In this document: positions 8,024-32,410 of the stretch, piece by piece
How the letters are laid out: every line of letters begins with the position of its first letter
How positions within the stretch are numbered: the stretch's first letter is position 1
Source of the DNA: Candidatus Ventrimonas merdavium
Lineage (GTDB): Bacteria; Bacillota; Clostridia; Lachnospirales; Lachnospiraceae
Direction of reading: 5' to 3'
DNA: 32,410 bases
Assembly (NCBI GenBank): GCA_018715565.1
Contig: DVLJ01000201.1
Span: 1 to 32,410 of the forward strand
The notes under the pieces: generated by a model
Database searches by the model: none
The model's input: the letters and a program-made list of their open reading frames with translations, nothing else
Told to the model about the DNA's origin: nothing
Position numbers and translations under genes: made by a program

Positions 8024-8728
8024 TTAGGAAGATGACTTCGGCGTCATCTTAATGATCCCCGTCTTATACAATACGTAACCGCACAGAACGCTCAGTGCCA
8101 TACATCCGATCACGACATACCCCTGTTTTCCGGAAAGGGGATAGAATTGGTTGACGATCAGTACTGCCAGGATCGGAACGATCAGCGTCAGGGTCTTATT
8201 CTTGGCCCGGTACTCGCCGCAGTTGTCATTCACATAGTTCCACAGCAGTCCGCCGAACAGAGCCGGCAGCAGATAGTTGGTAGCAGTCTGTACCGTAGGG
8301 CTCATCAGGACTGGCCGCAGCGGCACGAGAAGGATCACGCCGATCACAATGATAACGGTGGTAACGGCAGAGGAAACTGCCACGCCGATGGCGGCTACCG
8401 TATCCCCTTCGTCGGTTCCCTGAGCTGCGTCTACCAGAGACTGGGCGTTGACTACTACAGGGATCTTTAACTGTGTTACATTTCCGGTCAGGAATGTAAT
8501 ATAAGAGGCAGAACCAAGGATCGGGGTGTATCCGAACACCTCCGAAACATTGGTCGGGATATATACTGCCAGAAGTCCGGCGCCTACGGCAACCAGTTCT
8601 CCGATGCCTGACGGCCATACGTCATAAACTGCGCTGACTACCGCCGGGATCCCCAGCATAAATACGATACCGATGATCACTCCGATCCGCCCAAGGCGGT
8701 GTATGCTTTTCTCGTAATTTTCGTTCAT
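8024..8728 (-). CDS. Integral membrane protein, probable partner of the DUF5058-like transporter protein
   Basis: 234 aa, many hydrophobic segments (IGVIIGIVFMLGIPAVVSAVYD...); SD GGAGGATAGT-ATG; directly downstream of the DUF5058-like gene. Confidence 0.7.
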   Translation of the reverse strand: MNENYEKSIHRLGRIGVIIGIVFMLGIPAVVSAVYDVWPSGIGELVAVGAGLLAVYIPTNVSEVFGYTPILGSASYITFLTGNVTQLKIPVVVNAQSLVDAAQGTDEGDTVAAIGVAVSSAVTTVIIVIGVILLVPLRPVLMSPTVQTATNYLLPALFGGLLWNYVNDNCGEYRAKNKTLTLIVPILAVLIVNQFYPLSGKQGYVVIGCMALSVLCGYVLYKTGIIKMTPKSSS

Positions 8729-8749
8729 ACTATCCTCCAGAAATTTGAA

Positions 8750-9469
8750 CTATCCCAGCACCTGCACCCAAAAGAGGGAGGAGGCCATACCAAGGATCAA
8801 TGTGACAGACATGATAAAACTGCGATACCATTTCAGCCCCGTAGCCCGGACAAACTGTCTCTGCAGGAACGAGAGCAGGCAGGCTGTTGCGGCCACAGCC
8901 AGGTGGACCGGCCCTTTGATCATCTGCATCGGCAGCAATGCCTCGATGATGGCCATGGACATGACCCCGGTCAGAAGCGCGCCCAGCGCTCCGTTCTTAT
9001 TTCTGGCGTTGGCTACGCTTGTCTGGATCTTCTTGCCGAACAGCAGAACGCCGATCATACCGCCCATGATACCGATACTCATCACGAACATCAGCGTACC
9101 GATGATTGAAGTGTCGCCCGCTGCGTTCAAAGCCGCGATGGACTCATATCCGGCCCCTGTTGCCGCCATGTCGGCGGCTGTGACTTCATAAGCCACAGCG
9201 CCCACAACCGACAGGCGGAACCAGGACCAGGGAACTCCGATCACCGTAGCGAGGCTGAACAGCCCCACCACGATCGACACAGAAGGAACAATGCTGTAGA
9301 TAGCGGAGGAGACGATCACCGACTTCAGCTTCTCTTCCGTCAATCCGATCTCCAATCCATGTTTGTATGCTTTCCGGAATGTCAGTCCGCAGAAGATTAA
9401 AATATAGACGATTCCTGCCCCCACCAGGCCATAAAGCAGCGGACTGTTCATAATTTCATTAAATGTCAT
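8750..9469 (-). CDS. DUF5058-like multi-pass membrane protein
   Basis: MTFNEIMNSPLLYGLVGAGIVYILIFCGLTFRKAYKHGLEIGL... resembles my recollection of DUF5058; SD TAGGAGGAAGGT-ATG. Confidence 0.65.
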   Translation of the reverse strand: MTFNEIMNSPLLYGLVGAGIVYILIFCGLTFRKAYKHGLEIGLTEEKLKSVIVSSAIYSIVPSVSIVVGLFSLATVIGVPWSWFRLSVVGAVAYEVTAADMAATGAGYESIAALNAAGDTSIIGTLMFVMSIGIMGGMIGVLLFGKKIQTSVANARNKNGALGALLTGVMSMAIIEALLPMQMIKGPVHLAVAATACLLSFLQRQFVRATGLKWYRSFIMSVTLILGMASSLFWVQVLG

Positions 9470-9550
9470 ACCTTCCTCCTAAATCCCCATATTCCCCATG
9501 GTTCTTATGTAGTGGTCTGATACCGGCTTTTCAGCCCTGGTATCCTGTGA

Positions 9551-10984
9551 TTACATTCCCTCTCCCGGTTTTGCCCCTTCGGGAAGCGGGGATAAGTATT
9601 CGCCTTTGGTCTCATCCAGCAGCTCCTGCTTCGCTTTTTCGGTCACGGACGGATCCTCGTATACCATGGTGCAGGCTCTTGCGATGCCTCTTGCTACTGC
9701 CTGGCTGGCCTTATCGCCGATAGAAGTGCCTACGATGGCGGTAAAGGGCCAGGTATGCGTGGTGATCCCCGGTACGCCGATGGCAACCCGGTACTGACCG
9801 GTGGGGATATTGTAGCTGACGTCGCCCACATCGGTGGAACCGGTGGACATGGTCTCCCGGTCCTTCTCACAGAACGGCAGGACTGTGGTATTCATCGGAC
9901 GGGCGGCAAATTCCTCTTTGGAGATGCCGTTCACTCTGGAACCAGCCTCCAGCGCTTTCTCTCTGTCCTCGTCAGACATTGCGGCCAGGAACTCTCTTGC
10001 GATGGCAAACTCTGCTTCGCCGAAGTCCGGTCCGCCCTGCTCCACGAACGCATCGGATAAAAGCTGAGATGCGGTGGGGTTGGGGATGTAATCGCTCATA
10101 CCGCCCAGAACCTTGATATCCACCTCGGTCTCCGTCATCATCGCCGCGCCCCGGGCAACCTTCTTTACCCGCTCCAGGATATCCTGGCAGATCTTCAGAC
10201 GCGGGCTGCGTACGAAGTACAGGAGGGAAGCTGTTTCCTGTACAACGTTGGGAGCGTCGCCGCCGCAGTCTAAGTAAGCATAGTGCATACGGGCAGTGGA
10301 AATAACGTGCTCGCGCAGATAGTTGACACCGACGTTCATCAGCTCGCAGGCGTCCAGAGCGCTTCTGCCGTCCTCCGGCGCTCTGCCGGCATGAGCGGCC
10401 TTGCCCTTGAAGTCAAATCTTACTTTGTAGTAAGCGGCGCTTCTGGTAAAGCAGCGGGTGGTGTCCATGGGATGCCAGCTGAAGCAGATATCCAGTCCGT
10501 CGAAGCAGTGCTCTCTTACCATAAAGCATTTGCCGAAGCCGGTCTCCTCTGCGGGGCATCCGAAGATCTTAATGGTACCCTGCTTGCCGGTCTCCTGTAA
10601 ATACTCTTTTACGATCAGGGCGGCTCCTACGGCGCCGGATCCCAGGGCACAGTGCCCGCAGCCATGGCCGTATTTCTGTCCCTCGATGGGACGGCGGTCG
10701 GTCTTGCCGGCCTCCTGGCTTAAGTTGGGCAGGGCGTCATACTCTGCCAGAATGCCGATCACGGGAGAACCGCTTCCATAGGTTCCTACAAATGCCGTCT
10801 CAATCCCGGCGATCCCGGTCTCTACCTCAAAGCCCTCGGCTCTTAACACGTCGGTCAGCTTCTTCGCGCTTTTGAATTCCTGATAACCGTATTCCGCGTA
10901 ACCCCATAACGACTGGTTCATATCTGCAATGATGGCGGACTTGTCCTCCGCGATCTGATGGATCCGTTCCTTTGTGCTGCTCAT
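9551..10984 (-). CDS. M20-family amidohydrolase, AbgB-like (p-aminobenzoyl-glutamate hydrolase subunit B type)
   Basis: GILAEYDALPNLSQEAG, GHGCGHCALGSGAVGAAL, GCPAEETGFGK metal-site motifs. Start 10984 (MSSTKERIHQ) preceded by GGAGGGAACGATT. Confidence 0.88.
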   Translation of the reverse strand: MSSTKERIHQIAEDKSAIIADMNQSLWGYAEYGYQEFKSAKKLTDVLRAEGFEVETGIAGIETAFVGTYGSGSPVIGILAEYDALPNLSQEAGKTDRRPIEGQKYGHGCGHCALGSGAVGAALIVKEYLQETGKQGTIKIFGCPAEETGFGKCFMVREHCFDGLDICFSWHPMDTTRCFTRSAAYYKVRFDFKGKAAHAGRAPEDGRSALDACELMNVGVNYLREHVISTARMHYAYLDCGGDAPNVVQETASLLYFVRSPRLKICQDILERVKKVARGAAMMTETEVDIKVLGGMSDYIPNPTASQLLSDAFVEQGGPDFGEAEFAIAREFLAAMSDEDREKALEAGSRVNGISKEEFAARPMNTTVLPFCEKDRETMSTGSTDVGDVSYNIPTGQYRVAIGVPGITTHTWPFTAIVGTSIGDKASQAVARGIARACTMVYEDPSVTEKAKQELLDETKGEYLSPLPEGAKPGEGM

Positions 10985-11029
10985 AATCGTTCCCTCCATA
11001 CTATAAAAAATGTGATTGAAAGTTTCGTG

Positions 11030-11043
11030 AAATACCGGTATTT
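11030..11043. promoter_or_regulatory. Perfect 14-bp palindrome in the M20 leader
   Basis: AAATACCGGTATTT, 46-59 nt upstream of the M20 start. Confidence 0.45.
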
Positions 11044-11071
11044 TTTGTTCAATGTGATTTGTGTTTTTTTC

Positions 11072-11121
11072 AAATCCATTGTTTATATTGTAAGGATACA
11101 TGGATTTTCAACAAAAATCCA
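11072..11121. promoter_or_regulatory. Candidate LysR-type regulator binding region
   Basis: AAATCCAT (11072-11079), ATGGATTTT (11100-11108) and AAAATCC (11114-11120), making nested inverted repeats in the divergent intergenic region. Confidence 0.5.
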
Positions 11122-15267: not shown

Positions 15268-15732
15268 TCAGGCAAAGATGGGGAACACGATCCTGGAGAT
15301 CCAAAGGGATACGAAAGCCAGTCCCCACTGGATCATGATGATCCATTTCTGACGCACTGCGCTGGTGCCGCACACGCTGATGATCCGCACCCACTGGGTG
15401 ATGGTCCCTCCGATCAAGAACATGGTGGGGAACAGGATCGTCGCCTGAAGCGGCGTCAGCAGCCCGTCTGCCACGAAGGTCGCCGCAGTGGCGCAGCCCC
15501 CGGCCTTACTGAAGAATACGGTCGCCAGACATACGATGGAGATGGGCGGCAGCCCGAAGATCCCCATGACCGGCGAGAAGATATTGGAAAGGATATCCAT
15601 CAGCCCGGTGGTCTCCAGAATATAGATAAAGGTGTAAGCCATGACGATGCTGGGCATCATGCTCTTTACAAAAATCCCCCAGCCCTTCCGTACGCCGTCC
15701 TGAAACGCGGTAAATACATTTCTCTTTTCCAT
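15268..15732 (-). CDS. YjiG-like nucleoside-recognition (Gate)-domain membrane protein
   Basis: VRKGWGIFVKSMMPSIVMAYTFIYILETTGLMDILSNIFSPVMGIFGLPPISIVCLATVFFSKAGG. Confidence 0.8.
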   Translation of the reverse strand: MEKRNVFTAFQDGVRKGWGIFVKSMMPSIVMAYTFIYILETTGLMDILSNIFSPVMGIFGLPPISIVCLATVFFSKAGGCATAATFVADGLLTPLQATILFPTMFLIGGTITQWVRIISVCGTSAVRQKWIIMIQWGLAFVSLWISRIVFPIFA

Positions 15733-15747
15733 GTGTATCTCCTTTCC

Positions 15748-16431
15748 TTAGCTCGCCGGCTGCGCCGCGGCCCGGTCATTCTTTGCTCCGTCCTTTTTCC
15801 GCCAGAAAGCGATAAAGGCTCGCATGATGTTTGCTTCCACAAATTTTAAAATAAACAGATACACAAACGGTACGCCAGAGCCTACGATCATGTACTCAAA
15901 CAGAGGGCTTGCTCCGCCGAAGTAATTGGCGATGATGCCTGCCGATGAATACTGGAACGTGGTGAAGATGTCCCGCTCATCCTCCGTAAGCTGTCCGGAA
16001 TCATAAAGCTCTCTCGTCATCGCTGCTCCTGCGTCTGAGCTGCTTAAGCTGCCTACCAGGGCCAGAGAGGCCTCTCCGGGAACGCCCATCAGCGGCTTCA
16101 TGATCGGGGTCAGGAGCTTTCCCGCTACCTTTAACGCTCCGTAGTTCTCAAACACTTCGATGAGTCCCATGGCGGCCATGACCGTGGGGGCCAGGGTCAG
16201 CGCGAACATAAAGCCGTCCCGGGCGCTTCCCCCGCCATTCCCGCGGAATGATACGCCGTCCGCGATCTCTCCAAATGTTCCCAACAGATTCGTAAAATCC
16301 ACTACCTTTAAGGGGCCTTCGGCGTTGGTAAATGCGCCGGAAAAAACCAGGACCGCCAGAACCAGCATGACCACGCCTGCGACGGTGATCTGTCTGCCCT
16401 TTTCCTCTTTGCCATTTTCTTTGCTACCCAT
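15748..16431 (-). CDS. YjiH-like nucleoside-recognition (Gate)-domain membrane protein
   Basis: MVLAVLVFSGAF...ALTLAPTVMAAMGLIEVFENYGALKVAGKLLTPIMKPLMGVPGEASLALVGSLSSSDAGAAMTRELYD; SD AAAAGGAGGAGAAAC-ATG. Confidence 0.82.
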   Translation of the reverse strand: MGSKENGKEEKGRQITVAGVVMLVLAVLVFSGAFTNAEGPLKVVDFTNLLGTFGEIADGVSFRGNGGGSARDGFMFALTLAPTVMAAMGLIEVFENYGALKVAGKLLTPIMKPLMGVPGEASLALVGSLSSSDAGAAMTRELYDSGQLTEDERDIFTTFQYSSAGIIANYFGGASPLFEYMIVGSGVPFVYLFILKFVEANIMRAFIAFWRKKDGAKNDRAAAQPAS

Positions 16432-16446
16432 GTTTCTCCTCCTTTT

Positions 16447-16497
16447 ATTTTATTGAAGCTTCAACAAAATCATAGGTCCATTTTGTTGAAAAGTCAA
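16447..16497 (-). promoter_or_regulatory. Promoter of yjiH-yjiG with overlapping operator array
   Basis: Minus strand TTGACT (16492-16497), 17 nt, TATGAT (16469-16474); three 11-mers ATTTTATTGAA (16447), TTCAACAAAAT (16460), ATTTTGTTGAA (16480) in alternating orientation. Confidence 0.75.
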
Positions 16498-16565
16498 TAA
16501 TATCCCAGCATTTTCCCTATGACCGTTTTTCATACCCCTTATCAAAAATTTTCATTGCCTGCCGG

Positions 16566-18110
16566 TCACTTGACCTCCCGCACCACGTCCATGATGGTGC
16601 CGTCCCGGCTCTCAATGATCCCCACGATCCGCTCTCCGAACTGGACCGGCTTCGGGGTCCCTACGATGCTGTAGGCGATATCCCGCAGCTCCTCAATCGT
16701 CTTTAACGGAACGCAGTCCGCCTTCTGGAGCGCCTCTAAAAGCTCTGGCCGGGCCGGGTTCACCGCCACGCCGTAATCCGTCACTACCACGTCGATGCTC
16801 TCTCCCGGCGTGGTCACCGTGGTCACATCGGTACAGATGGCCGGGATCCGTCCCTGGAGAAGGGGGCAGATCACGATGGTGCATTTTGCTCCCTGGGCCG
16901 CGTCCGGATGGCCGCCCTGAGCGCCAGTGATGACGCCGTTGGAGCCGACCACCACGTTGCAGTTAAAATGCACGTCCACCTCCAGGGCTGCCAGCACTAC
17001 ATAGTCCAGCTTGTTGACGAAGGCTCCCTTGTTGAACGGGTTGGCATAGGCGCCCGCGCTGATCCGGTGGTGGTTGGGCCGTTTTACGGAATTAACCGCA
17101 AACAGGTCAAAATCCTGGGTGTCCAGCAGTTTTCCTACCAGGCCCTTATCCAGCATATCCACCATCCCTTTGCTCATGCCTCCTACGGCAAACCCCATCT
17201 TGATCCCCCGCTCCTCCATGATCTTGGCCAGGGAAGCTGCGGAGGCAATGGACGCGCCGCCTACTCCGGTCTGATAGGAAAAGCCGTCCTTAAAGTAAGG
17301 CGTATTGATCACCACCTGGGTGCAGTAATCCGCCATCATCAGCTTTCTGGTATCTGTGGTAGGCTTTGCCGCTCCCGTGGCGATCTTCTCCGGGATGCCG
17401 ATGGCATCTACCACGCACACGTAATCCACCCGAGTCATGGCAATATCTGCCGGGAAATTGGGGAAGGGCACCAGACAGTCGGTCACCGCCACCACCTTGT
17501 TGGCGTGCTGTCCGTCTACAAAGGAGTAGGACAAAACGCCGCAGTCACTTTTTCCGCCGATCCCCTTGCAGTTGCCGTAATCATCGCAGGTAGAGGCGCC
17601 GATAAAGGAAATATCGATGACTGTCTCGCCGGTGTGGATAGCCCGGACCCGCCCGCCGTGAGAGCGCATGATCGCCAGCCCCTTTAATTTGCCGTGGGAA
17701 ATGGCCTCGCCGATCTTTCCCCGCACGCCGGAGGATTCGATCCCCGTGATGGTCCCGTCCTCGATGTATTCCAGCAGCGGATCATGGGCCTTTCCCAGGG
17801 AGCTGGCGCAGATCGTCACGTTCTTAAAGCCCATGTCGTGGACTTCCTTCATCACCATGTTGACCACCAGATCTCCCTCCCGGAAATGATGGTGGAAGCC
17901 CAGGGTCATCCCGTCATGTGCCCCGCACTTGATCAGAGCCTCGCGGATGGAGGACACCAGCTTGCTGGTGTTCCGGTCCATGACCGGCTTTACGATCGGC
18001 CCCTGTTTCCGGTATTCTACCCCTTCTTTATAGCAATTTCCCTGGAACGGCTCCTTCCCCGTCAGCCGGAGGATCTCGTCCGGGATCTCCCGTCCTACTG
18101 CATTTCTCAT
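16566..18110 (-). CDS. citF: Citrate lyase-type alpha subunit (CoA transferase)
   Basis: 514 aa; CitF-like N-terminus and C-terminus (GERIVGIIESRDGTIMDVVREVK); follows citD and citE. Confidence 0.93.
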   Translation of the reverse strand: MRNAVGREIPDEILRLTGKEPFQGNCYKEGVEYRKQGPIVKPVMDRNTSKLVSSIREALIKCGAHDGMTLGFHHHFREGDLVVNMVMKEVHDMGFKNVTICASSLGKAHDPLLEYIEDGTITGIESSGVRGKIGEAISHGKLKGLAIMRSHGGRVRAIHTGETVIDISFIGASTCDDYGNCKGIGGKSDCGVLSYSFVDGQHANKVVAVTDCLVPFPNFPADIAMTRVDYVCVVDAIGIPEKIATGAAKPTTDTRKLMMADYCTQVVINTPYFKDGFSYQTGVGGASIASAASLAKIMEERGIKMGFAVGGMSKGMVDMLDKGLVGKLLDTQDFDLFAVNSVKRPNHHRISAGAYANPFNKGAFVNKLDYVVLAALEVDVHFNCNVVVGSNGVITGAQGGHPDAAQGAKCTIVICPLLQGRIPAICTDVTTVTTPGESIDVVVTDYGVAVNPARPELLEALQKADCVPLKTIEELRDIAYSIVGTPKPVQFGERIVGIIESRDGTIMDVVREVK

Positions 18111-18111
18111 A

Positions 18112-19014
18112 CTAACACTCCTCCTTTAACACGCCTGCGGCCTTTGCCAGGGCAAGCGTCCGCTTCGCCCCGTCGTAAAAGGCGATATCGATCATTTTTC
18201 CATCTACCGTAAATACCCCGATGCCCAGCTTCTTCTTCTCGTCGATCTCCCGCACCACCTTCTGGGCAAAGATGATCTCCTTTTCCGTGGGCGTGTAAAT
18301 CTTATGGACCGGGGCGATCTGCCGGGGATTGATGACGGATTTGCCGTCAAATCCCATCATGTGGATCATCTCCACCTCTCTGCGGAAGCCTTCCATATCG
18401 TTAAGGTCCGTGTATACGGTATCAAAGCACTGGACGCCTGCCGCTCTCGCCGCGATGATCATCAGCTGTCGGGCTCCCATCAGCTCTACCCCGGTCCCGG
18501 TGATCCGCGTCTGAAGATCCTTCGTATAGTCGCCGCCGGAAAGGGCGATGCCGAATAACCGGTCAGAGGCGCTGCAGATGCTCAGGGCGTTTAACACCCC
18601 TTTCGCCGACTCCAGCGCTGCCATGATCAGCACGCTCCCCGGCTCCCGTCCAAATTCCTGCTCCGCCTGCTCCACCGCCGCTTCTACTTTCTTCACGTCC
18701 CCGGCAGTCTCCGTCTTAGGGATCCGGATCCCGTCCGCTCCGCCGGCTACGGCGCAGCGGACATCCTCCTCCCACAGGTCTGTGTCCAGCCCGTTGATCC
18801 GGACGATGCACTCGATCCCCCGGTAGTTGATCTCCTGCAGCGCGTGGTACAGGGAGAACCGGGCGGCGTCCTTTTCTTTCTCCGCCACCGCGTCCTCCAG
18901 ATCCAGCATGATGCTGTCCGGCTGATAGATATAAGGATCCTTGATCAGACCCGGCTTCTGTGCATTTAAAAACATCATGGTCCTTCTGAGACGTTTTTTG
19001 TTTGGATTGCTCAC
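18112..19014 (-). CDS. citE: Citrate lyase-type beta subunit
   Basis: RRTMMFLNAQKPGLIKDPYIYQPDSIMLDLEDAVAEKEKDAARF, GIRIPKTETAGDV, GFDGKSVINPRQIAPVH. GTG start at 19014 overlaps the citD stop (GTGA). Confidence 0.94.
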   Translation of the reverse strand: MSNPNKKRLRRTMMFLNAQKPGLIKDPYIYQPDSIMLDLEDAVAEKEKDAARFSLYHALQEINYRGIECIVRINGLDTDLWEEDVRCAVAGGADGIRIPKTETAGDVKKVEAAVEQAEQEFGREPGSVLIMAALESAKGVLNALSICSASDRLFGIALSGGDYTKDLQTRITGTGVELMGARQLMIIAARAAGVQCFDTVYTDLNDMEGFRREVEMIHMMGFDGKSVINPRQIAPVHKIYTPTEKEIIFAQKVVREIDEKKKLGIGVFTVDGKMIDIAFYDGAKRTLALAKAAGVLKEEC

Positions 19015-19310
19015 CGTATCGCACCTCCCCACGGCAGATGATCCTTCTGCCCTATGCTTCTGTATACCGCGCATTCCACACGGGCTTTTACCGTACAGTC
19101 CAGCGCTCCCTTGTCCACGACCCGGATGCGCACATCCTCTACCTCCAGCCGTTTTAAGGTCTCCAGGATGACGTTCTGGATCTGTTCCCCGAACTGGTTC
19201 ATCACTGCGCTTTCCAGATCCAGCTCTACCTGTCCGCAGCCCGGTTCCACCGTTACCATACAGTCGCTGGATTCCAGCGTTCCTGCCATCGCATTCCGCT
19301 CAATTTTCAT
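19011..19310 (-). CDS. citD: Citrate lyase-type acyl carrier protein (gamma subunit)
   Basis: MKIERNAMAGTLESSDCMVTVEPG...VVDKGALDCTVKARVECAVYRS; conserved prosthetic-group Ser context (GTLESSD). Confidence 0.94.
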   Translation of the reverse strand: MKIERNAMAGTLESSDCMVTVEPGCGQVELDLESAVMNQFGEQIQNVILETLKRLEVEDVRIRVVDKGALDCTVKARVECAVYRSIGQKDHLPWGGAIR

Positions 19311-19441
19311 GACCGCCCCACCTTTCCTGCATTTCACTCGTTACGTTCTTTTCCTGTTTTCTTACTCTTGTATTCTGATTCTTGTTTTCTTCTTCCTGTG
19401 CCTTCTCATTCCCCGTTCCCCTCCGGTTGTCTCCTGCTTCA

Positions 19442-20599
19442 TCACCGCTGACAGGCTACTCGGACCACGCCGTCCATAAGCAGGTTTGCCGTTCGGAAGC
19501 CAAACGTATCCCGGATCCTTGGCAGCCCGTCTGCTTGCTCATAGTCCACGCCGCATTCCAGAACGCCTCCCGGGTGGCCGATGCGGATCCGCTGGGCATC
19601 CATCCCATCCCGGCACACCTGGCTGACCAGACTTCCCGGGATCACCGCTGCCGCCGCCGTACACATCGCCCCGGTCATGGCGTAGGTGGGATGAGCCTTC
19701 TGCATGGACATCATCCTGGCTGCCAGATCCACGTCCTCTTTCCTCACAAGCGTCCCGTCCGACGCCTGGTAATCCTGGGGAGACGACACGATCGTCATCT
19801 TCGGGATCCCGGGAGTCTCCCAGGCCGACGCAGTGTGATCGGCGATCAGGCCCAGCCTTACCGCCGCAAGCCCCCGGACCGTCTCCAGCAGCCGGGACCG
19901 TTCCGGATCGCCGTTTATCTCCTCCGGCAGCTCCCGCCCGGTCATCCCCAGATCCTCCGCCTTCACAAAGACCAATGGATTGGCTGCGTCCACAATGGAG
20001 ACCTGTATCGGTCCATACCCGGGGACCTCCAGCATGTCGATCGCCTGTCCGGTGGGGAGCAGTCCCCGCCCCAGGGTCCCCGCCGGATCTAAGAACCGCA
20101 AGCGGACAGGAGCCGCCGTTCCCGGCACCCCGGCTATGGAAAAGTCCCCTTCATACCGGACTGCCCCGCCTTCGGTCTGCACGTCCTCGGCAATGAGCTT
20201 GTCCGTATTGGTGTTGTAGATCCTGACCGTGGTGATTCCTTCCCCTGCCGGCACCAGCCCCCGCTCAATGGCGAAAGGACCTACCCCGGAGGAAATATTC
20301 CCGCAGTTGCCTTTATAGCTGACGATCGGCTTGTCCACCGACACCTGAGCGAAGGTATAGTCCACATCCGCGTCCGCCCGGGAGGACGGGCGGATGATCG
20401 CCACCTTGCTGGTCACCGACTGGGAGCCGCCCAGACCGTCGATCTGCTTCCGGTCCGGGCTTCCCATCATCCGCAGCAGGATGGGATCCCAGGCGCTCCG
20501 GTCCTCCGGCAGATCCTTCTCCAAAAGATACACGCCCTTGCTGGTCCCGCCCCGCATGGTCATTGCCGGGATGCGCAGGATCCTGCCCCTAGTTTCCAT
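19442..20599 (-). CDS. PrpF/YbhH-family (2-methylaconitate/4-oxalomesaconate-type) isomerase
   Basis: [63 protein letters not shown]. Confidence 0.9.
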
Positions 20600-22856
20600 T
20601 TCTGCTCCGGTTGTAATTGATCAGGGAGCCGCACCGGATGATCTCCTTCTCCTCCTCTGTCAAAGGCTCGATGGCCAGAGACAGCTTCCGGACATTCTCT
20701 CCCAGAATGTATGCTTCGATCTCTTTTCCATCCGTATCCAGGGCGCTCCGGATATTCGGCACAAACAGATAATCGTCCTCTGCAAAGTCCGCCTCTCCCC
20801 TGCACACAAACGGCACCATTCCCCAGTTGATCAGGTTGGACCGGTAGCGCTTGGTGGCGTATTCCGAAGCGATGTTGGCGCCGCCCAAAAGCACTCTCTG
20901 ACAGGAGGCCGCCTGCTCTCTTGCGGAACCGTCTCCGGGCTTTACGGCGTAGATCACGCTGGAAAGGTCCACCGCATCTTCCTCCAGAGTCTCCCAGCCG
21001 GGGATGGCGCGGATCTGCTCCAGGGCTTCCCGCACCTCGCTGGGACACGCCCCTGCCTTCCACTCTCCTTCCATCTGCTTCACTGCCTTGGCTCTGCCTA
21101 CATACTCCGGCACTCTGCGGCTTAAGGTGAATTCCGCCAGTCCCAGGGGATTGGAGCGGAAGGAACCGGTCTCTCCCGACGGGATCAGCTCGTCCGTGGT
21201 AGTCACCGGATCCGTAATGTAGGCGCACACCTTCATCAGCAGATGCTCCGGCAGACTGGGAAGCTCCGGCCAGTCCTTGATGTTCGGACCGCAGACCAGC
21301 TTCTCAGAGGGATCGCCTTTTCCAAAGCCCTGATAGATCCGCTGCCGGTAGGCCTCCGGATCATAGGCATACTCCGGACAGGTGAATTCATAGCCCAGCT
21401 CGTCCGCCGCTGTGATCCGCCCGCCGTTGACCGCCGTAGCGGCAATGGATCTGGCGTCCATCAAAGCCACGCTGGCCAGCTGGCCGCTGCCCGGCTTGGA
21501 GCCTTCCCGGTTGGGGAAATTCCGGGTGGTATGGCGGATCGCCAGCTGTCCGTTGGCCGGAGTGTCTCCGGCTCCGAAGCAGGGACCGCAGATGGCCGTG
21601 CGGATCACGGTTCCCGAAGCGATCAGTGTTTCCGCTGCTCCCTTCCGCACCAGATCCATCATGACCGCCTGGGAACCGGGATAAACGCTCAGATGGAACC
21701 CGTCCGCTCCCGTTCCGCGGCCCTTCAGAAGATAAGCGGCCTCCATCAGGTTGGAATAGGTCCCGCCCGCACATCCGGCGATGGTACCCTGATCTGCGTA
21801 CAAGGCTCCGTCATGGACCTTCTCCCACAGGTTCAGAGGAAGCTCCGGATGCTTGATCAGCTTTTTGGCGTCCTCCTCTACCTCATGGAGGATGTCGTCT
21901 AAGTTCGCGTTCAGCTCCCGGATCTCATAGCCGTTGGACGGGTGGAACGGCAGAGCGATCATGCTGTGCACCGTGGACAGATCCAGATAAATGCAGCCGT
22001 CATAATAGGCTGTCTCTTCCGGATCCAGCTGCCGGAATTCCTGTCCTCTGCCATGGGCCGCAAGGTAGGCTTTGGTGTCCTCGTCGGTCCGCCAGATAGA
22101 AGATAAACAGGTGGTCTCTGTGGTCATCACGTCGATGCCGTTGCGGTAATCTGTGCTCATAGAGGAAACGCCCGGTCCTACAAACTCCATCACCTTGTTC
22201 TTCACATACCCGTTCCGGAACACTGCCGACACAATGGCAATGGCGATATCCTGGGGTCCTACGCCGGGTCTCGGCTTGCCGTCCAGATACACGGCTACTA
22301 CCTCCGGGTAATCGATATCCCAAGTCTGGCAAAGGATTTGCTTCACCAGCTCTCCGCCGCCTTCCCCTACGGCCATGGTGCCCAGCGCCCCGTAGCGGGT
22401 GTGAGAATCGGAGCCCAGGATCATTTTGCCGCCCCCGGCCATGGTCTCCCGCATGTACTGGTGGATCACCCCGATATGGGGAGGAACGTAGACCCCGCCG
22501 TACTTTTTCGCCGCGGTCAGTCCGAATACATGGTCGTCCTCATTGATGGTGCCGCCCACGGCGCACAAGCTGTTGTGGCAGCAGGTGAGCACATAAGGGA
22601 GGGGGAAACGGTCCATTCCCGACGCCCGGGCGGTCTGTACGATCCCCACATAGGTCAGATCGTGGCTGGTGATCGCGTCAAACCGGATCTTCAGATGCTT
22701 TGGATCGCCGCTGGTATTATGCTCCTGCAGGATGCGGCTGGCGATCGTGCCCGCCCGGCTCTTCTCCTTCTTCTCCAGCAGCTCTCTTCCTGCTTCCTTT
22801 TCCGGAACAATCTCGGTGCCATTTAAAAGAAATACCCCTGAATCATATAGTTTCAT
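20589..22856 (-). CDS. Aconitase-superfamily hydratase, YbhJ-like
   Basis: [81 protein letters not shown] (Fe-S and active-site motifs); C-terminal [13 protein letters not shown]. Start 22856 (MKLYDSGVF) chosen over ORF-track 23003. Confidence 0.9.
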
Positions 22857-23113: not shown

Positions 23114-23165
23114 AAAAAGGATGCAGCCCGGTCATCGAAATCCTCGACCGGACTGCATCCTTTTC
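23114..23165. terminator. Bidirectional terminator
   Basis: AAAAGGATGCAG-CC-CGGTC...GACCG-GA-CTGCATCCTTTT. Confidence 0.8.
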
Positions 23166-23194: not shown

Positions 23195-24109
23195 TTATTT
23201 TAAACTGTTCACATACGCCGCCGCATTGATCGCCGCCACGGCCCCGTCGGACACGGCGGTAGCCGCCTGCCGCACCTGCTTCACGCAGATATCCCCTGCC
23301 GCGTATACGCCGGGAATGGCGGTGGCCTGCTTTTCGTCGGTCACCAGGTAACCGTCCTTCTGCTCCAGCTGAGGGTACAGCTCTGTGTTGGGGCAGGATC
23401 CGGCGTAGATGAAAATCCCGCAGCCGGGAGCCTGGATCACGGTCTGCTCTCCGGTGTGCTCGTCAGTCACTACCAGCTCGTCCGCCTGGCCGTTCCCCCG
23501 CACCTGGGTCAGCCGGGAGTGGAGCATCAGCCGGATGTTCTCCGTTTTCTCCACCCTCTTGTAGAATTCCGGGATTGTCCCCAGCCGGTCCTCAAAATGG
23601 ATGATGGTCAGAGTCTTGGCAAACTGGGACAGATACAGGGCTTCCTTCACCGCCCCGTCGGCTCCGCCGACCACGAAGATATCCTTGTCCGCATACCGTT
23701 TGCCGTCCCGGGCTGCGTTCAGGCCGGTGCCCCGGCCGGCAAACTCCGCCTCTCCCGGGATCCCCAGCTTCCGGGGAGTGGTCCCGGCCGCGATGATCAC
23801 CGCCTTAGCCTCATAGGTGTGCTCCCCCGTTGTCACCGTCTTTACCGGGCCGGAAAGCTGGACGCCCGTCACCTGCTCCAGAACGATCTTGGCTCCCGCG
23901 GACTCAGCCTGCTCCCGCAGCCGGGCGGCAAAGGTAGCACCGGTCTCCTCTTTCACGATCCCGGCATAATGGGTCACCGTGGACACGCCTCCGATCAGAC
24001 CGCCTACCGCCTTCTGCTCCAGCACCAGGGTCTTCAATCCCCGGCTGACGGCGTACACTGCGCTGCTGATACCGGCAGGGCCGGCTCCGATGATACAGAT
24101 GTCATACAT
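23195..24109 (-). CDS. Thioredoxin-reductase-like FAD/NAD(P)-dependent oxidoreductase
   Basis: YDICIIGAGPAGISSAVYAVSRGLKTLVLE; FVVGGADGAVKEALYLS; GVYAAGDICVKQVRQAATAVSDGAVAA. The usual CxxC redox pair is not visible at the canonical position (GTGLNAARDGKRYADKDIFVVGG). Confidence 0.88.
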   Translation of the reverse strand: MYDICIIGAGPAGISSAVYAVSRGLKTLVLEQKAVGGLIGGVSTVTHYAGIVKEETGATFAARLREQAESAGAKIVLEQVTGVQLSGPVKTVTTGEHTYEAKAVIIAAGTTPRKLGIPGEAEFAGRGTGLNAARDGKRYADKDIFVVGGADGAVKEALYLSQFAKTLTIIHFEDRLGTIPEFYKRVEKTENIRLMLHSRLTQVRGNGQADELVVTDEHTGEQTVIQAPGCGIFIYAGSCPNTELYPQLEQKDGYLVTDEKQATAIPGVYAAGDICVKQVRQAATAVSDGAVAAINAAAYVNSLK

Positions 24110-24168
24110 GATCTTCTTCCTCCTTGTTTGGTCTTATATGGATAAATGGTTATAAAAACTTATCTTGA

Positions 24169-25200
24169 CTACAGGATCCCCAGCAGGTTCTGCATCCCCA
24201 GGCTCACCGCCGCAATGGCTGCCCAGCAGCACAGTCCCATGAAGATCGCCTTCCCGCCGGTGCGGATCATCTTTACCAGATCTGTGTTCAGCCCGATGGC
24301 CGCCATAGCCATGATGATAAAGAACTTAGACAGCTCTTTCAGCGGAGCGAAGGCCGACGCCTCGATCCCTGCCGCCACCGCCGCCGTGGTGATCACAGAA
24401 GCCAGCAGGAAAAACAGGATGAAGAACGGGAACACCTTCTTGAGCTGGAAGTTCCCCTGACCGGAGCCAGCCGCTTCCTTTTTCGTTTTGGCCGTTCTCC
24501 ACAGGGCCAGGACCAAAGTGATCGGGATGATGGCCAGGGTTCTGGTCAGCTTGACGATCGTGGCCGTGTCCAGGGTATTGGCTCCCGGGTGCATCCCATC
24601 CCAGGCTGTGGCCGCAGCAGTCACGGAAGATGTATCATTCACCGCCGTTCCCGCGAACAGGCCGAATCCGGCATTCGATAAGCCCAGGACGCTTCCCAGA
24701 GTGGGGAAGATCAGGGCGGCGATCACGTTGAACAGAAAGATCACGGAGATGGCCTGAGCGATCTCCTCATCGTCCGCATCGATCACCGGCGCCGTAGCCG
24801 CGATGGCGGAGCCGCCGCAGATAGAGGAGCCGACTCCCACCAGGGTGGAAATGTTGGCCGGCATCTTCATCAGCCGGTACAGTCCGTAGGACACCACCAG
24901 GGAGGTGGTGATCGTAGACAGGATGATCGGCAGGGAGGCCGCCCCTACCCGGGCGATCTCCGATAGGTTCATGCCAAAGCCCAGCAAGATGACTGCATAC
25001 TGCAGGATCTTTTTTGATGTATACTGGATCCCCGCCTTCGTGCGGTCCTTCTCCCTCCAGATCATGGTGAGCACCATGCCGCACAGGATCGCGAATACCG
25101 GTCCTCCGATGATGGGAAATTGTTTTCCCAGAAGCCAGCAGGGCAGGGCGATCGCCAGACATAACAGTACGCCCGGTCCTAATGTTTTCAGCTTTTCCAT
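24169..25200 (-). CDS. YeiH-family putative sulfate/anion exporter (PF03601-type)
   Basis: [44 protein letters not shown]...[39 protein letters not shown]. Start 25200 chosen for GGAGGAACCT-ATG. Confidence 0.88.
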
Positions 25201-25329
25201 AGGTTCCTCCATTCCGTTTTCATTGTCCGTTTTAATTACCAGTTTTTTCATTTTCAGGGAATAGTATACATGAGCTAAACGATCATGTAAAATTATGTAT
25301 TTTTATGTTATAATAAATTTACATTATGG

Positions 25330-25397
25330 TTTTTGAAGCTTTCCGGTTTTTAAAATCTTCCGATTTTTGAAGTTCTCAGATTTTGAAGATAACAGGA
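25330..25397 (+). repeat. Four imperfect 17-bp tandem repeats in the LysR leader
   Basis: TTTTTGAAGCTTTCCGG | TTTTTAAAATCTTCCGA | TTTTTGAAGTTCTCAGA | TTTTGAAGATAACAGGA, exact 17-nt period. Confidence 0.75.
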
Positions 25398-25422
25398 TCT
25401 ACCCAAAGGAGGAACAAATCAC

Positions 25423-26415
25423 ATGTTGGATTTTCGCGTCGAGACCTTCCTGACGGTCTGCCAGACCATGAACTTTACCGAGGCTGCCCGGCTGCTGCAC
25501 ATCACCCAGCCCGCCGTATCCCAGCATATCCACGGGCTGGAAAAGCAGTTTGACGCGGTATTTTTCCAATACGAAGGGAAACGGCTGTCTTTAACAGCCG
25601 CCGGCCAGCTGTTCTACCGGACGGCCCTGGCAATGCGCCACGATGTGGACCATCTAAAGCAGCAGCTCAGCCAGGTGGACGCAGCCCCGGTACTAAACTT
25701 CGGCGCCACCCTGACGGTGGGCGAATACATCATGCCGCCCATGCTCCTGCGGCTTTTAAAGACCCGCCCGGAGGTACGGCTCCGCATGCTGGTGGAGAAC
25801 ACGGATGTGCTCCTGAAGCTGCTGAACCAGGGAGAGATCGACTTCGCCATTGTGGAGGGGTATTTCCCCCGGCAGACCTATGAGGGCCTGCCCTTCCGCA
25901 CAGAACGGTTCCTTCCTGTGTGTGCTCCCGGCGCGTTCCCGGCTGTTCCCACCGTCCCAGCTGTTTCCAGCGCCCTCACTATCCCTGCCGCTGTCCCCGC
26001 CGTCCCTGCTGCCCCTGCCAATGCTCCTGCCGTTCCTGCCGTCCCAGTCGTCCCAGCCAGTGCCCCCCTGCCTCTGGAAGCCCTCCTTTCCTGCCGCCTG
26101 CTGGTCCGGGAAGCCGGTTCCGGCACCCGGGAGATCCTGGAACGGTCCCTGCGGGAGCACAACCTGGCTCTGTCGGATTTCCCCAAGCTGACAGAGCTGG
26201 GCAATCTCAATGTCATCAAGACACTGGTCATGGCAGGCCTGGGGATCTCCTTCTGCTACGAATCTGTGGTCCGGGAGGAGCTGGCGGACGGACGGCTTCA
26301 GGAGATCCCGGTAGAAGGATTTCCCGTGACCCACGATTTCACGTTCCTGTGGCAGAAGGACAGCGTATTCTCAGAGTATTACCGGAGCGTGTTTGAGGCG
26401 CTCTGTCCAGGCTGA
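25423..26415 (+). CDS. LysR-family regulator (YeiE/CysB-like) with a Pro/Ala/Val-rich insertion
   Basis: MLDFRVETFLTVCQTMNFTEAARLLHITQPAVSQHIHGLEKQF; LLVREAGSGTREILERSL; divergent from yeiH-like gene. Confidence 0.93.
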   Translation: MLDFRVETFLTVCQTMNFTEAARLLHITQPAVSQHIHGLEKQFDAVFFQYEGKRLSLTAAGQLFYRTALAMRHDVDHLKQQLSQVDAAPVLNFGATLTVGEYIMPPMLLRLLKTRPEVRLRMLVENTDVLLKLLNQGEIDFAIVEGYFPRQTYEGLPFRTERFLPVCAPGAFPAVPTVPAVSSALTIPAAVPAVPAAPANAPAVPAVPVVPASAPLPLEALLSCRLLVREAGSGTREILERSLREHNLALSDFPKLTELGNLNVIKTLVMAGLGISFCYESVVREELADGRLQEIPVEGFPVTHDFTFLWQKDSVFSEYYRSVFEALCPG

Positions 26416-32311: not shown

Positions 32312-32410
32312 TCAATCATCATAACGGTCGTCATCATCGTCATCATCATCGTCGTCATAACGATCATCCCGGTCGTCGTCATCGTCATCATCATCGCGAT
32401 CGTCCCGGTC
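32312..32410 (-). CDS. C-terminal tail of an Asp-rich protein (5' end beyond the window)
   Basis: Minus-strand open frame to TGA (32312-32314): DRDDRDDDDDDDDRDDRYDDDDDDDDDDRYDD*. Confidence 0.6.
   Translation of the reverse strand, partial: DRDDRDDDDDDDDRDDRYDDDDDDDDDDRYDD

What the first reader, a model, noticed from the sequence alone, without database searches (positions are those of the whole stretch)
15268..22856. Predicted trans-aconitate (or related unsaturated acid) fermentation operon: ybhJ-like hydratase, prpF-like isomerase, citDEF, yjiHG
Seen: same-strand, tightly packed genes for an aconitase-superfamily hydratase, a PrpF-family isomerase overlapping it by 11 bp, then citD, citE, citF, then a YjiH/YjiG membrane pair. 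Known: AcnD/PrpF act together in the 2-methylcitrate route, PrpF proteins isomerise cis/trans aconitates, E. coli carries ybhH (PrpF-like) and ybhJ near each other with unclear function, and citrate lyase cleaves citrate to acetate and oxaloacetate. Inference: trans-aconitate -> cis-aconitate (PrpF) -> citrate (YbhJ) -> acetate + oxaloacetate (CitDEF), with YjiHG or another protein as transporter. An equally open variant is mesaconate/citraconate -> citramalate -> acetate + pyruvate, since clostridial citramalate lyase is a CitDEF homologue. I know of no description of this exact set as a pathway.
Basis: partly seen in the sequence, partly recalled or inferred. Interest (0 to 1): 0.8.

Follow-up and report, generated by a model that had tools for sequence, protein, structure and literature searches.

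The report
Dedicated trans-aconitate fermentation operon, gut bacterium
Five packed genes in a gut Lachnospiraceae bacterium look like a one-operon kit for turning the plant acid trans-aconitate into citrate and then splitting it to acetate and oxaloacetate; the pathway is known biochemically in Acidaminococcus, but I found no description of this compact operon or of its isomerase gene in such fermenters.

Summary
A YbhJ-type aconitase-superfamily protein, a PrpF-family isomerase (11-bp overlap), and CitD, CitE and CitF lie tightly on the minus strand. The linkage is conserved. Among 80 genomes carrying the PrpF orthologue, 38 have YbhJ within 2 kb, 69 have a MatC/CitMHS-type carrier close by, and 14 have the whole PrpF-YbhJ-CitDEF set. 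Several unrelated YbhJ lineages show it. One of the 80 is Acidaminococcus fermentans, the classic trans-aconitate fermenter, with PrpF-MatC-YbhJ. The same genome carries a second YbhJ beside citrate synthase and an isocitrate-dehydrogenase-like gene, marking the family as aconitase. It also has CitC, CitX-CitG and oxaloacetate decarboxylase elsewhere. Best reading: trans-aconitate to cis-aconitate to citrate to acetate plus oxaloacetate (confidence 0.76; substrate not shown by experiment). First, YjiHG is probably not part of it: a promoter-like site over an inverted repeat lies in the gap, it is absent from all 80 relatives, and elsewhere it sits with dipeptidases. Second, the route is published for A. 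fermentans, and a PrpF-superfamily aconitate isomerase (TarA) is published too. What seems undescribed is the single operon. Importer and regulator remain unassigned.

The parts
20589..22856 (-). YbhJ-type hydratase (aconitase superfamily, 755 aa); proposed cis-aconitate + H2O to citrate
   Evidence: PRK11413 1263 bits; Fe-S cysteines Cys362, Cys423, Cys426 and DSHT, HQ, RNF..R, GS.RE motifs aligned with aconitase 1aco/AcnA; in a 20-row fully supported clade of YbhJ proteins beside PrpF
19442..20599 (-). PrpF-family isomerase (385 aa); proposed aconitate isomerase, trans- to cis-aconitate
   Evidence: PF04303 448 bits; catalytic Lys (TSK) and Cys (GNCGN) conserved with SoPrpF K73/C107; 65-78% identical to orthologues next to MatC carriers and YbhJ, incl. 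A. fermentans 68%
19011..19310 (-). CitD, citrate lyase acyl carrier protein (conserved AGTLESSD motif)
   Evidence: TIGR01608 113.5 bits over cut-off 63.5
18112..19014 (-). CitE, citrate lyase beta subunit; GTG start overlapping the CitD stop (GTGA)
   Evidence: TIGR01588 362.5 bits, below cut-off 443.4 as is the genome's other CitE at 340.8; overlap read
16566..18110 (-). CitF, citrate lyase alpha subunit (acyl-ACP transferase)
   Evidence: TIGR01584 641 bits over cut-off 501; 92-94% identical to CitF of other PrpF-linked clusters L028, L033, L037
23115..23164 (-). hairpin plus T-run (terminator-like) ending the upstream TrxR-like unit, separating it from the operon
   Evidence: 19-nt inverted repeat, 95% complementary, 12-nt loop; sequence
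16447..16503 (.). inverted repeat overlapping a sigma-70-like promoter (TTGACT-17-TATGAT, 16497-16469) between CitF and YjiH; suggests YjiHG has its own transcript
   Evidence: consensus match only
15748..16431 (-). YjiH (Gate domain membrane protein); probably NOT part of the pathway
   Evidence: absent near PrpF in 80 of 80 related loci; 2 of 295 genomes of the order
15268..15732 (-). YjiG (Gate domain membrane protein); probably NOT part of the pathway
   Evidence: PRK10519 129.6 bits over cut-off 111; next to iadA in E. coli and M20 peptidase-like genes in L144

Best explanation
A five-gene operon (ybhJ-prpF-citD-citE-citF) dedicated to anaerobic trans-aconitate fermentation. The PrpF-family enzyme isomerises trans-aconitate to cis-aconitate. 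The YbhJ-type Fe-S aconitase hydrates it to citrate. The CitDEF complex splits citrate to acetate and oxaloacetate. Activation factors (CitC, CitX-CitG) and an oxaloacetate decarboxylase are supplied from other contigs. The carrier that brings trans-aconitate in is not encoded in the operon and is unassigned: relatives have a MatC-type carrier exactly between prpF and citD, which this operon lacks. Shown by sequence: the families, active-site residues, operon layout, conserved linkage and presence of accessory genes. Inferred: substrate, direction, transporter and regulation.
For: (1) Linkage. Of 80 PrpF-orthologue loci, 38 have YbhJ within 2 kb, 69 a MatC/CitMHS carrier within 8 kb and 14 the full PrpF-YbhJ-CitDEF set. 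Gene order YbhJ-PrpF-MatC-CitDEF followed by CitX/G and CitC in L022 and L028 matches the window, without MatC. (2) Separate YbhJ lineages carry the association: the window clade, Oribacterium, Acidaminococcus, Lacrimispora and others. (3) A. fermentans L087 has divergent LysR, PrpF (68% identical), MatC, YbhJ. That species grows on trans-aconitate via citrate and oxaloacetate, and its genome paper lists a MatC protein and adjacent aconitase-domain protein (Acfer_0630, 0631) for the route (PMC3035267). (4) YbhJ as aconitase: the paralogue on contig C92 (about 65% identical) is followed directly by citrate synthase and an isocitrate-dehydrogenase-like gene, and YbhJ occurs in 186 of 200 Lachnospiraceae. 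(5) PrpF-superfamily TarA and TbrA are experimentally aconitate isomerases, and SoPrpF interconverts cis- and trans-aconitate. (6) CitC, CitX-CitG (L013) and OadB (C211) are in the genome. (7) Some relatives carry a tricarboxylate receptor gene TctC in the cluster.
Against: No biochemical or expression data. The MatC-type carrier of relatives is missing from the operon and no homologue was found in the genome. The window PrpF is nearly equally distant from Mii (47%), SoPrpF (45%) and GalD (43%), so residues alone do not fix the substrate, and no TarA sequence was at hand. The genome already has another CitDEF beside a CitMHS carrier (L014), so CitDEF here might have a different substrate. CitE is below the curated cut-off, though so is the other CitE in this genome. 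The linked loci were selected by PrpF similarity and many are close relatives.
Confidence: 0.76

Rival explanations
1. C5 route: the isomerase turns itaconate or mesaconate into citraconate, the hydratase makes citramalate, and CitDEF acts as citramalate lyase giving acetate and pyruvate, by analogy with Mii plus the aconitase-type dimethylmalate dehydratase of nicotinate fermenters (that analogy from memory).
For: The closest solved relative of the PrpF is 3-methylitaconate isomerase 3g7k. Citramalate lyase is a CitDEF homologue (established knowledge). The genome has a separate CitDEF beside a CitMHS carrier that could serve citrate.
Against: YbhJ is about 65% identical to a paralogue beside citrate synthase and shares its active-site residues. 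Neighbouring carriers in relatives are MatC/CitMHS and TctC types. A. fermentans with PrpF-MatC-YbhJ is a trans-aconitate fermenter. Only weak partial enolase-superfamily matches, no full-length methylaspartate ammonia-lyase, were found in the genome.
Confidence: 0.1
2. Citrate or cis-aconitate housekeeping: the operon simply supplies a second aconitase and citrate lyase for citrate turnover, with PrpF clearing trans-aconitate that forms by side reaction and inhibits aconitase.
For: trans-Aconitate inhibits aconitase (PMC13188880 and its references). YbhJ-CitDEF without adjacent PrpF occurs in L102, L107 and L111.
Against: In most relatives PrpF sits next to a dedicated carrier (69 of 80), pointing to uptake, and many loci are PrpF-carrier alone. 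The genome already has a CS-linked aconitase and a second CitDEF.
Confidence: 0.08
3. 2-Methylcitrate (propionate) or 4-oxalomesaconate route, as for textbook PrpF/AcnD or GalD.
For: PrpF family membership.
Against: The PrpF scores below both curated equivalog cut-offs (354 vs 440.6 for PrpF, 360 vs 440 for oxalomesaconate tautomerase). No methylcitrate synthase/lyase or gallate genes were recognised in the window.
Confidence: 0.03
4. YjiHG is the trans-aconitate carrier of this operon, having replaced MatC (an add-on to the best explanation, not exclusive of it).
For: Same strand, directly downstream; no MatC homologue found in this genome.
Against: Promoter-like site over an inverted repeat in the gap; no linkage in 80 relatives; YjiHG lies with isoaspartyl dipeptidase in E. 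coli and with M20-peptidase-like genes in L144; the genome has seven other places over the PF03600 carrier cut-off.
Confidence: 0.12

Closest known systems
trans-Aconitate fermentation of Acidaminococcus fermentans (Hartel and Buckel 1996, as cited in PMC3035267)
   Same: Same predicted route (trans-aconitate to citrate to oxaloacetate); same PrpF-carrier-YbhJ gene unit in A. fermentans L087.
   Different: In L087 no CitDEF gene was found in the PrpF cluster, and the genome paper puts citrate lyase at other locus tags (Acfer_0408-0410); here CitDEF follows PrpF directly and the carrier is missing. That paper's gene list for the route does not include the isomerase.
tarRAB trans-aconitate assimilation system of Bacillus velezensis (PMC11495376)
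   Same: PrpF-superfamily aconitate isomerase; LysR regulator in relatives; isomerase-carrier pairing in relatives.
   Different: TarB is an MFS carrier and the product enters the aerobic TCA cycle; no dedicated aconitase or citrate lyase in the operon.
E. coli ybhD/ybhHIJ
   Same: LysR divergent from PrpF-like ybhH, a tricarboxylate-type carrier ybhI and ybhJ hydratase.
   Different: YbhH passes the oxalomesaconate-tautomerase model (515 bits, cut-off 440) and is 41% identical to the window PrpF; no citrate lyase; function unknown.
Mii methylitaconate isomerase with dimethylmalate dehydratase (nicotinate fermentation; partly from memory)
   Same: PrpF-family isomerase acting ahead of an aconitase-family hydratase and a C-C lyase.
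   Different: The lyase is of another family and the substrates are dimethyl dicarboxylates; 47% identity of the isomerases.
AcnD/PrpF of the 2-methylcitrate cycle
   Same: Aconitase-superfamily protein plus PrpF encoded together.
   Different: AcnD is another aconitase subfamily (64.5 bits vs cut-off 1420); propionate route.

Membership tests
YbhJ/PRK11413 hydratases (aconitase superfamily) | score above curated cut-off | tested here: met
   1263 vs 641 bits
YbhJ/PRK11413 hydratases (aconitase superfamily) | three Fe-S ligand cysteines and catalytic Ser-x-Arg, DSH motifs | tested here: met
   Cys362, Cys423, Cys426, S644-A645-R646, D150-S151-H152 invariant
YbhJ/PRK11413 hydratases (aconitase superfamily) | aconitate hydratase activity | not testable with these tools
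   supported only by the CS/ICDH context of the paralogue
PrpF family (PF04303) | Pfam gathering score and catalytic Lys/Cys | tested here: met
   448 bits vs 27; TSK and GNCGN conserved
2-methylaconitate isomerase PrpF (TIGR02334) | equivalog cut-off 440.55 | tested here: not met
   354.3 bits
4-oxalomesaconate tautomerase (NF033377) | equivalog cut-off 440 | tested here: not met
   359.7 bits
TarA-type aconitate isomerase | sequence clade with TarA | not tested
Citrate lyase CitDEF | CitD and CitF cut-offs | tested here: met
   113.5 vs 63.5; 641 vs 501
Citrate lyase CitDEF | CitE cut-off (TIGR01588, 443.4) | tested here: not met
   362.5 bits; the genome's other CitE scores 340.8 and E. coli CitE 452, so the model is tight for this taxon
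Citrate lyase CitDEF | activation factors CitC, CitX, CitG in genome | tested here: met
   contig C163, all over their cut-offs
Complete trans-aconitate catabolic unit | cognate carrier in or near the operon | tested here: not met
   no MatC homologue found in window or genome; YjiHG linkage not conserved

The most novel reading that the evidence does not exclude
The operon is a fermentative route for an unsaturated C5 acid such as itaconate (isomerised to citraconate, hydrated to citramalate, cleaved to acetate and pyruvate), a second itaconate-consuming pathway in gut anaerobes unrelated to the CoA-dependent Rip route.
Probability: 0.1. Interest if true: 0.75.

Novelty: new variant of a known kind. 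Interest (0 to 1): 0.5.

Why it matters
trans-Aconitate is a major acid of grasses, and its ruminal reduction product tricarballylate is toxic to the host (PMC5830445 citing Cook et al. 1994; abundance in grasses from PMC11495376 and general knowledge). The gene set names likely genes for a phenotype known since the 1990s, including the isomerase that the A. fermentans genome paper did not list. It predicts which gut Lachnospiraceae, Oscillospiraceae and Synergistaceae can use this acid. It also gives the widespread 'hydratase' YbhJ a probable role as aconitase (186 of 200 Lachnospiraceae genomes carry it) and suggests a hypothesis for the uncharacterised E. coli ybhHIJ genes.

Tried and rejected
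AlphaFold of YbhJ from 11 sequences gave pLDDT 48.8 and was not used for a fold search. Solved-structure alignments did not cover the region of aconitase's substrate-binding Arg580, so the suggested match to the [12 protein letters not shown].(F/Y)R motif stays a lead from memory. A viral-contig scan for YjiH found nothing. A plasmid search for PrpF was made in the hope of finding a Bacillus TbrA; none was among the listed hits. The original papers on A. fermentans are not held. The TrxR/YeiH genes upstream were rejected as part of the operon because of the terminator-like hairpin. CitE and CitF trees are small and partly open, so they only show that the window copies group with other PrpF-linked ones.
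Full report
WHAT IS THERE. The window is contig C73 of a 3.09-Mb, 97% complete genome; its nearest named relatives are Lachnospiraceae. On the minus strand it holds a YbhJ-type hydratase, a PrpF-family protein, CitD, CitE and CitF in a row. YbhJ and PrpF overlap by 11 bp, CitD and CitE by a GTGA, and CitF starts one base after CitE. A hairpin with a T-run at 23115-23164 closes the upstream TrxR-like gene, so the operon starts with YbhJ. The 134-bp gap after CitF contains the best promoter-like match of the region, overlapping an inverted repeat, so YjiHG may well be a separate transcription unit.

CONSERVATION. A scan of GTDB genomes with the PrpF protein gave 80 loci at 66-78% identity. YbhJ lies within 2 kb in 38 of them, a carrier with MatC_N and CitMHS domains within 8 kb in 69, and the complete PrpF-YbhJ-CitDEF set occurs in 14. 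Clostridium clostridioforme L022 and Clostridiales 1_7_47_FAA L028 show LysR divergent from YbhJ-PrpF-MatC-CitD-CitE-CitF followed by CitX/G and CitC, the window order plus the carrier. YjiH and YjiG were found in none of the 80. In a random sample of 200 family genomes only 3 had this PrpF, whereas 186 had YbhJ. A simple placement estimate is about 0.4% per locus; relatedness and selection by PrpF make an exact probability meaningless, but the association is beyond chance because it recurs on separate branches of the YbhJ tree.

WHAT YbhJ DOES. Cysteine ligands and core catalytic motifs of aconitase are present. The genome's second YbhJ, on C92, lies directly before citrate synthase (597.7 bits, cut-off 426) and an isocitrate-dehydrogenase-like gene. 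Several other Lachnospiraceae YbhJ genes lie beside citrate synthase or ICDH. The simplest reading is that the family is aconitase. The window copy shares these residues and belongs to a 20-row clade with full support, 19 rows of which are PrpF-linked on the same strand and the last (L030) PrpF-adjacent on the opposite strand.

WHAT PrpF DOES. It keeps the lysine and cysteine shown to matter in Shewanella PrpF, is below the curated cut-offs for both 2-methylaconitate isomerase and oxalomesaconate tautomerase, and is 65-78% identical to the orthologues that sit with MatC carriers. The A. fermentans orthologue behaves the same on the models. PrpF-superfamily TarA and TbrA are proven aconitate isomerases (PMC11495376), and that paper already predicted gut species, an Acidaminococcus among them, to use trans-aconitate.

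LINK TO A PHENOTYPE. Acidaminococcus fermentans uses trans-aconitate as sole energy source, via citrate, oxaloacetate and pyruvate (PMC3035267 citing Hartel and Buckel 1996). Its genome (L087) carries LysR, PrpF, MatC, YbhJ. The genome paper lists a MatC protein and the neighbouring aconitase-domain protein for the route but no isomerase. That L087 corresponds to Acfer_0630-0631 is my inference from gene order; the strain differs.

SUPPORTING GENES. CitC and fused CitX-CitG are on C163 and score over their cut-offs; oxaloacetate decarboxylase beta is on C211. A second CitDEF stands beside a CitMHS-type carrier on C167, so the window CitDEF looks like the dedicated copy. No MatC homologue was found in the genome (the tool warns that an empty answer without a positive control proves little). 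Seven places pass the PF03600 carrier cut-off and four the TctC cut-off, so the importer cannot be named.

YjiHG. Rare in the order (2 of 295 genomes). In E. coli it is in a row with isoaspartyl dipeptidase and in L144 with two M20-peptidase-like genes and a divergent LysR. It is best left out of the pathway.

KNOWN OR NEW. The chemistry and the enzyme families are known. In the open literature I found no paper joining aconitate isomerase with citrate lyase in one anaerobic operon (searches; subscription papers are mostly missing). I file it as a new variant of a known kind. About 49 of the 80 loci carry rabbit or ruminant tags in their titles (read by eye), which fits a plant acid but also reflects where sequencing was done.

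LIMITS. Substrate, direction, carrier and regulator are inferred. The C5-acid alternative is kept at 0.10 because the PrpF residues do not discriminate.

Noticed in passing
L008:10775-15458: In this genome a YbhJ-type protein is followed directly by citrate synthase and an isocitrate-dehydrogenase-like gene; YbhJ is near-universal in Lachnospiraceae (186 of 200), suggesting it is the aconitase of the family although NCBIfam calls it only 'hydratase'.
   Followed up: partly
L097:3623-9765: E. coli ybhD/ybhH/ybhI/ybhJ has the same layout (LysR, PrpF-like, tricarboxylate-type carrier, hydratase) as Acidaminococcus L087, though YbhH belongs to a different PrpF subfamily.
   Followed up: partly
window 16447-16503: A 24-nt, 83% complementary inverted repeat overlaps a promoter-like site upstream of yjiH; operator-like.
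   Followed up: partly
window 23195-26415: A TrxR-like FAD protein and a YeiH-family carrier form a unit divergent from a LysR gene whose substrate-binding domain is interrupted by a Pro/Ala/Val-rich stretch of about 50 residues.
   Followed up: no
window 8024-11101: M20-family peptidase with a DUF5058 membrane protein and a second membrane protein without Pfam match.
   Followed up: no
L018, L026, L039, L052 near PrpF: Some rabbit-gut relatives carry a tricarboxylate-receptor gene (TctC) next to PrpF and the MatC carrier; TctA/TctB partners were not looked for.
   Followed up: no
L102, L107, L111: YbhJ adjacent to CitDEF without adjacent PrpF in three Lachnospiraceae loci; in G114 a PrpF-MatC pair lies on the same contig about 17 kb away.
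   Followed up: partly
window 32315-32410: Degenerate tandem repeat (periods 9, 24, 36) at the contig end.
   Followed up: no
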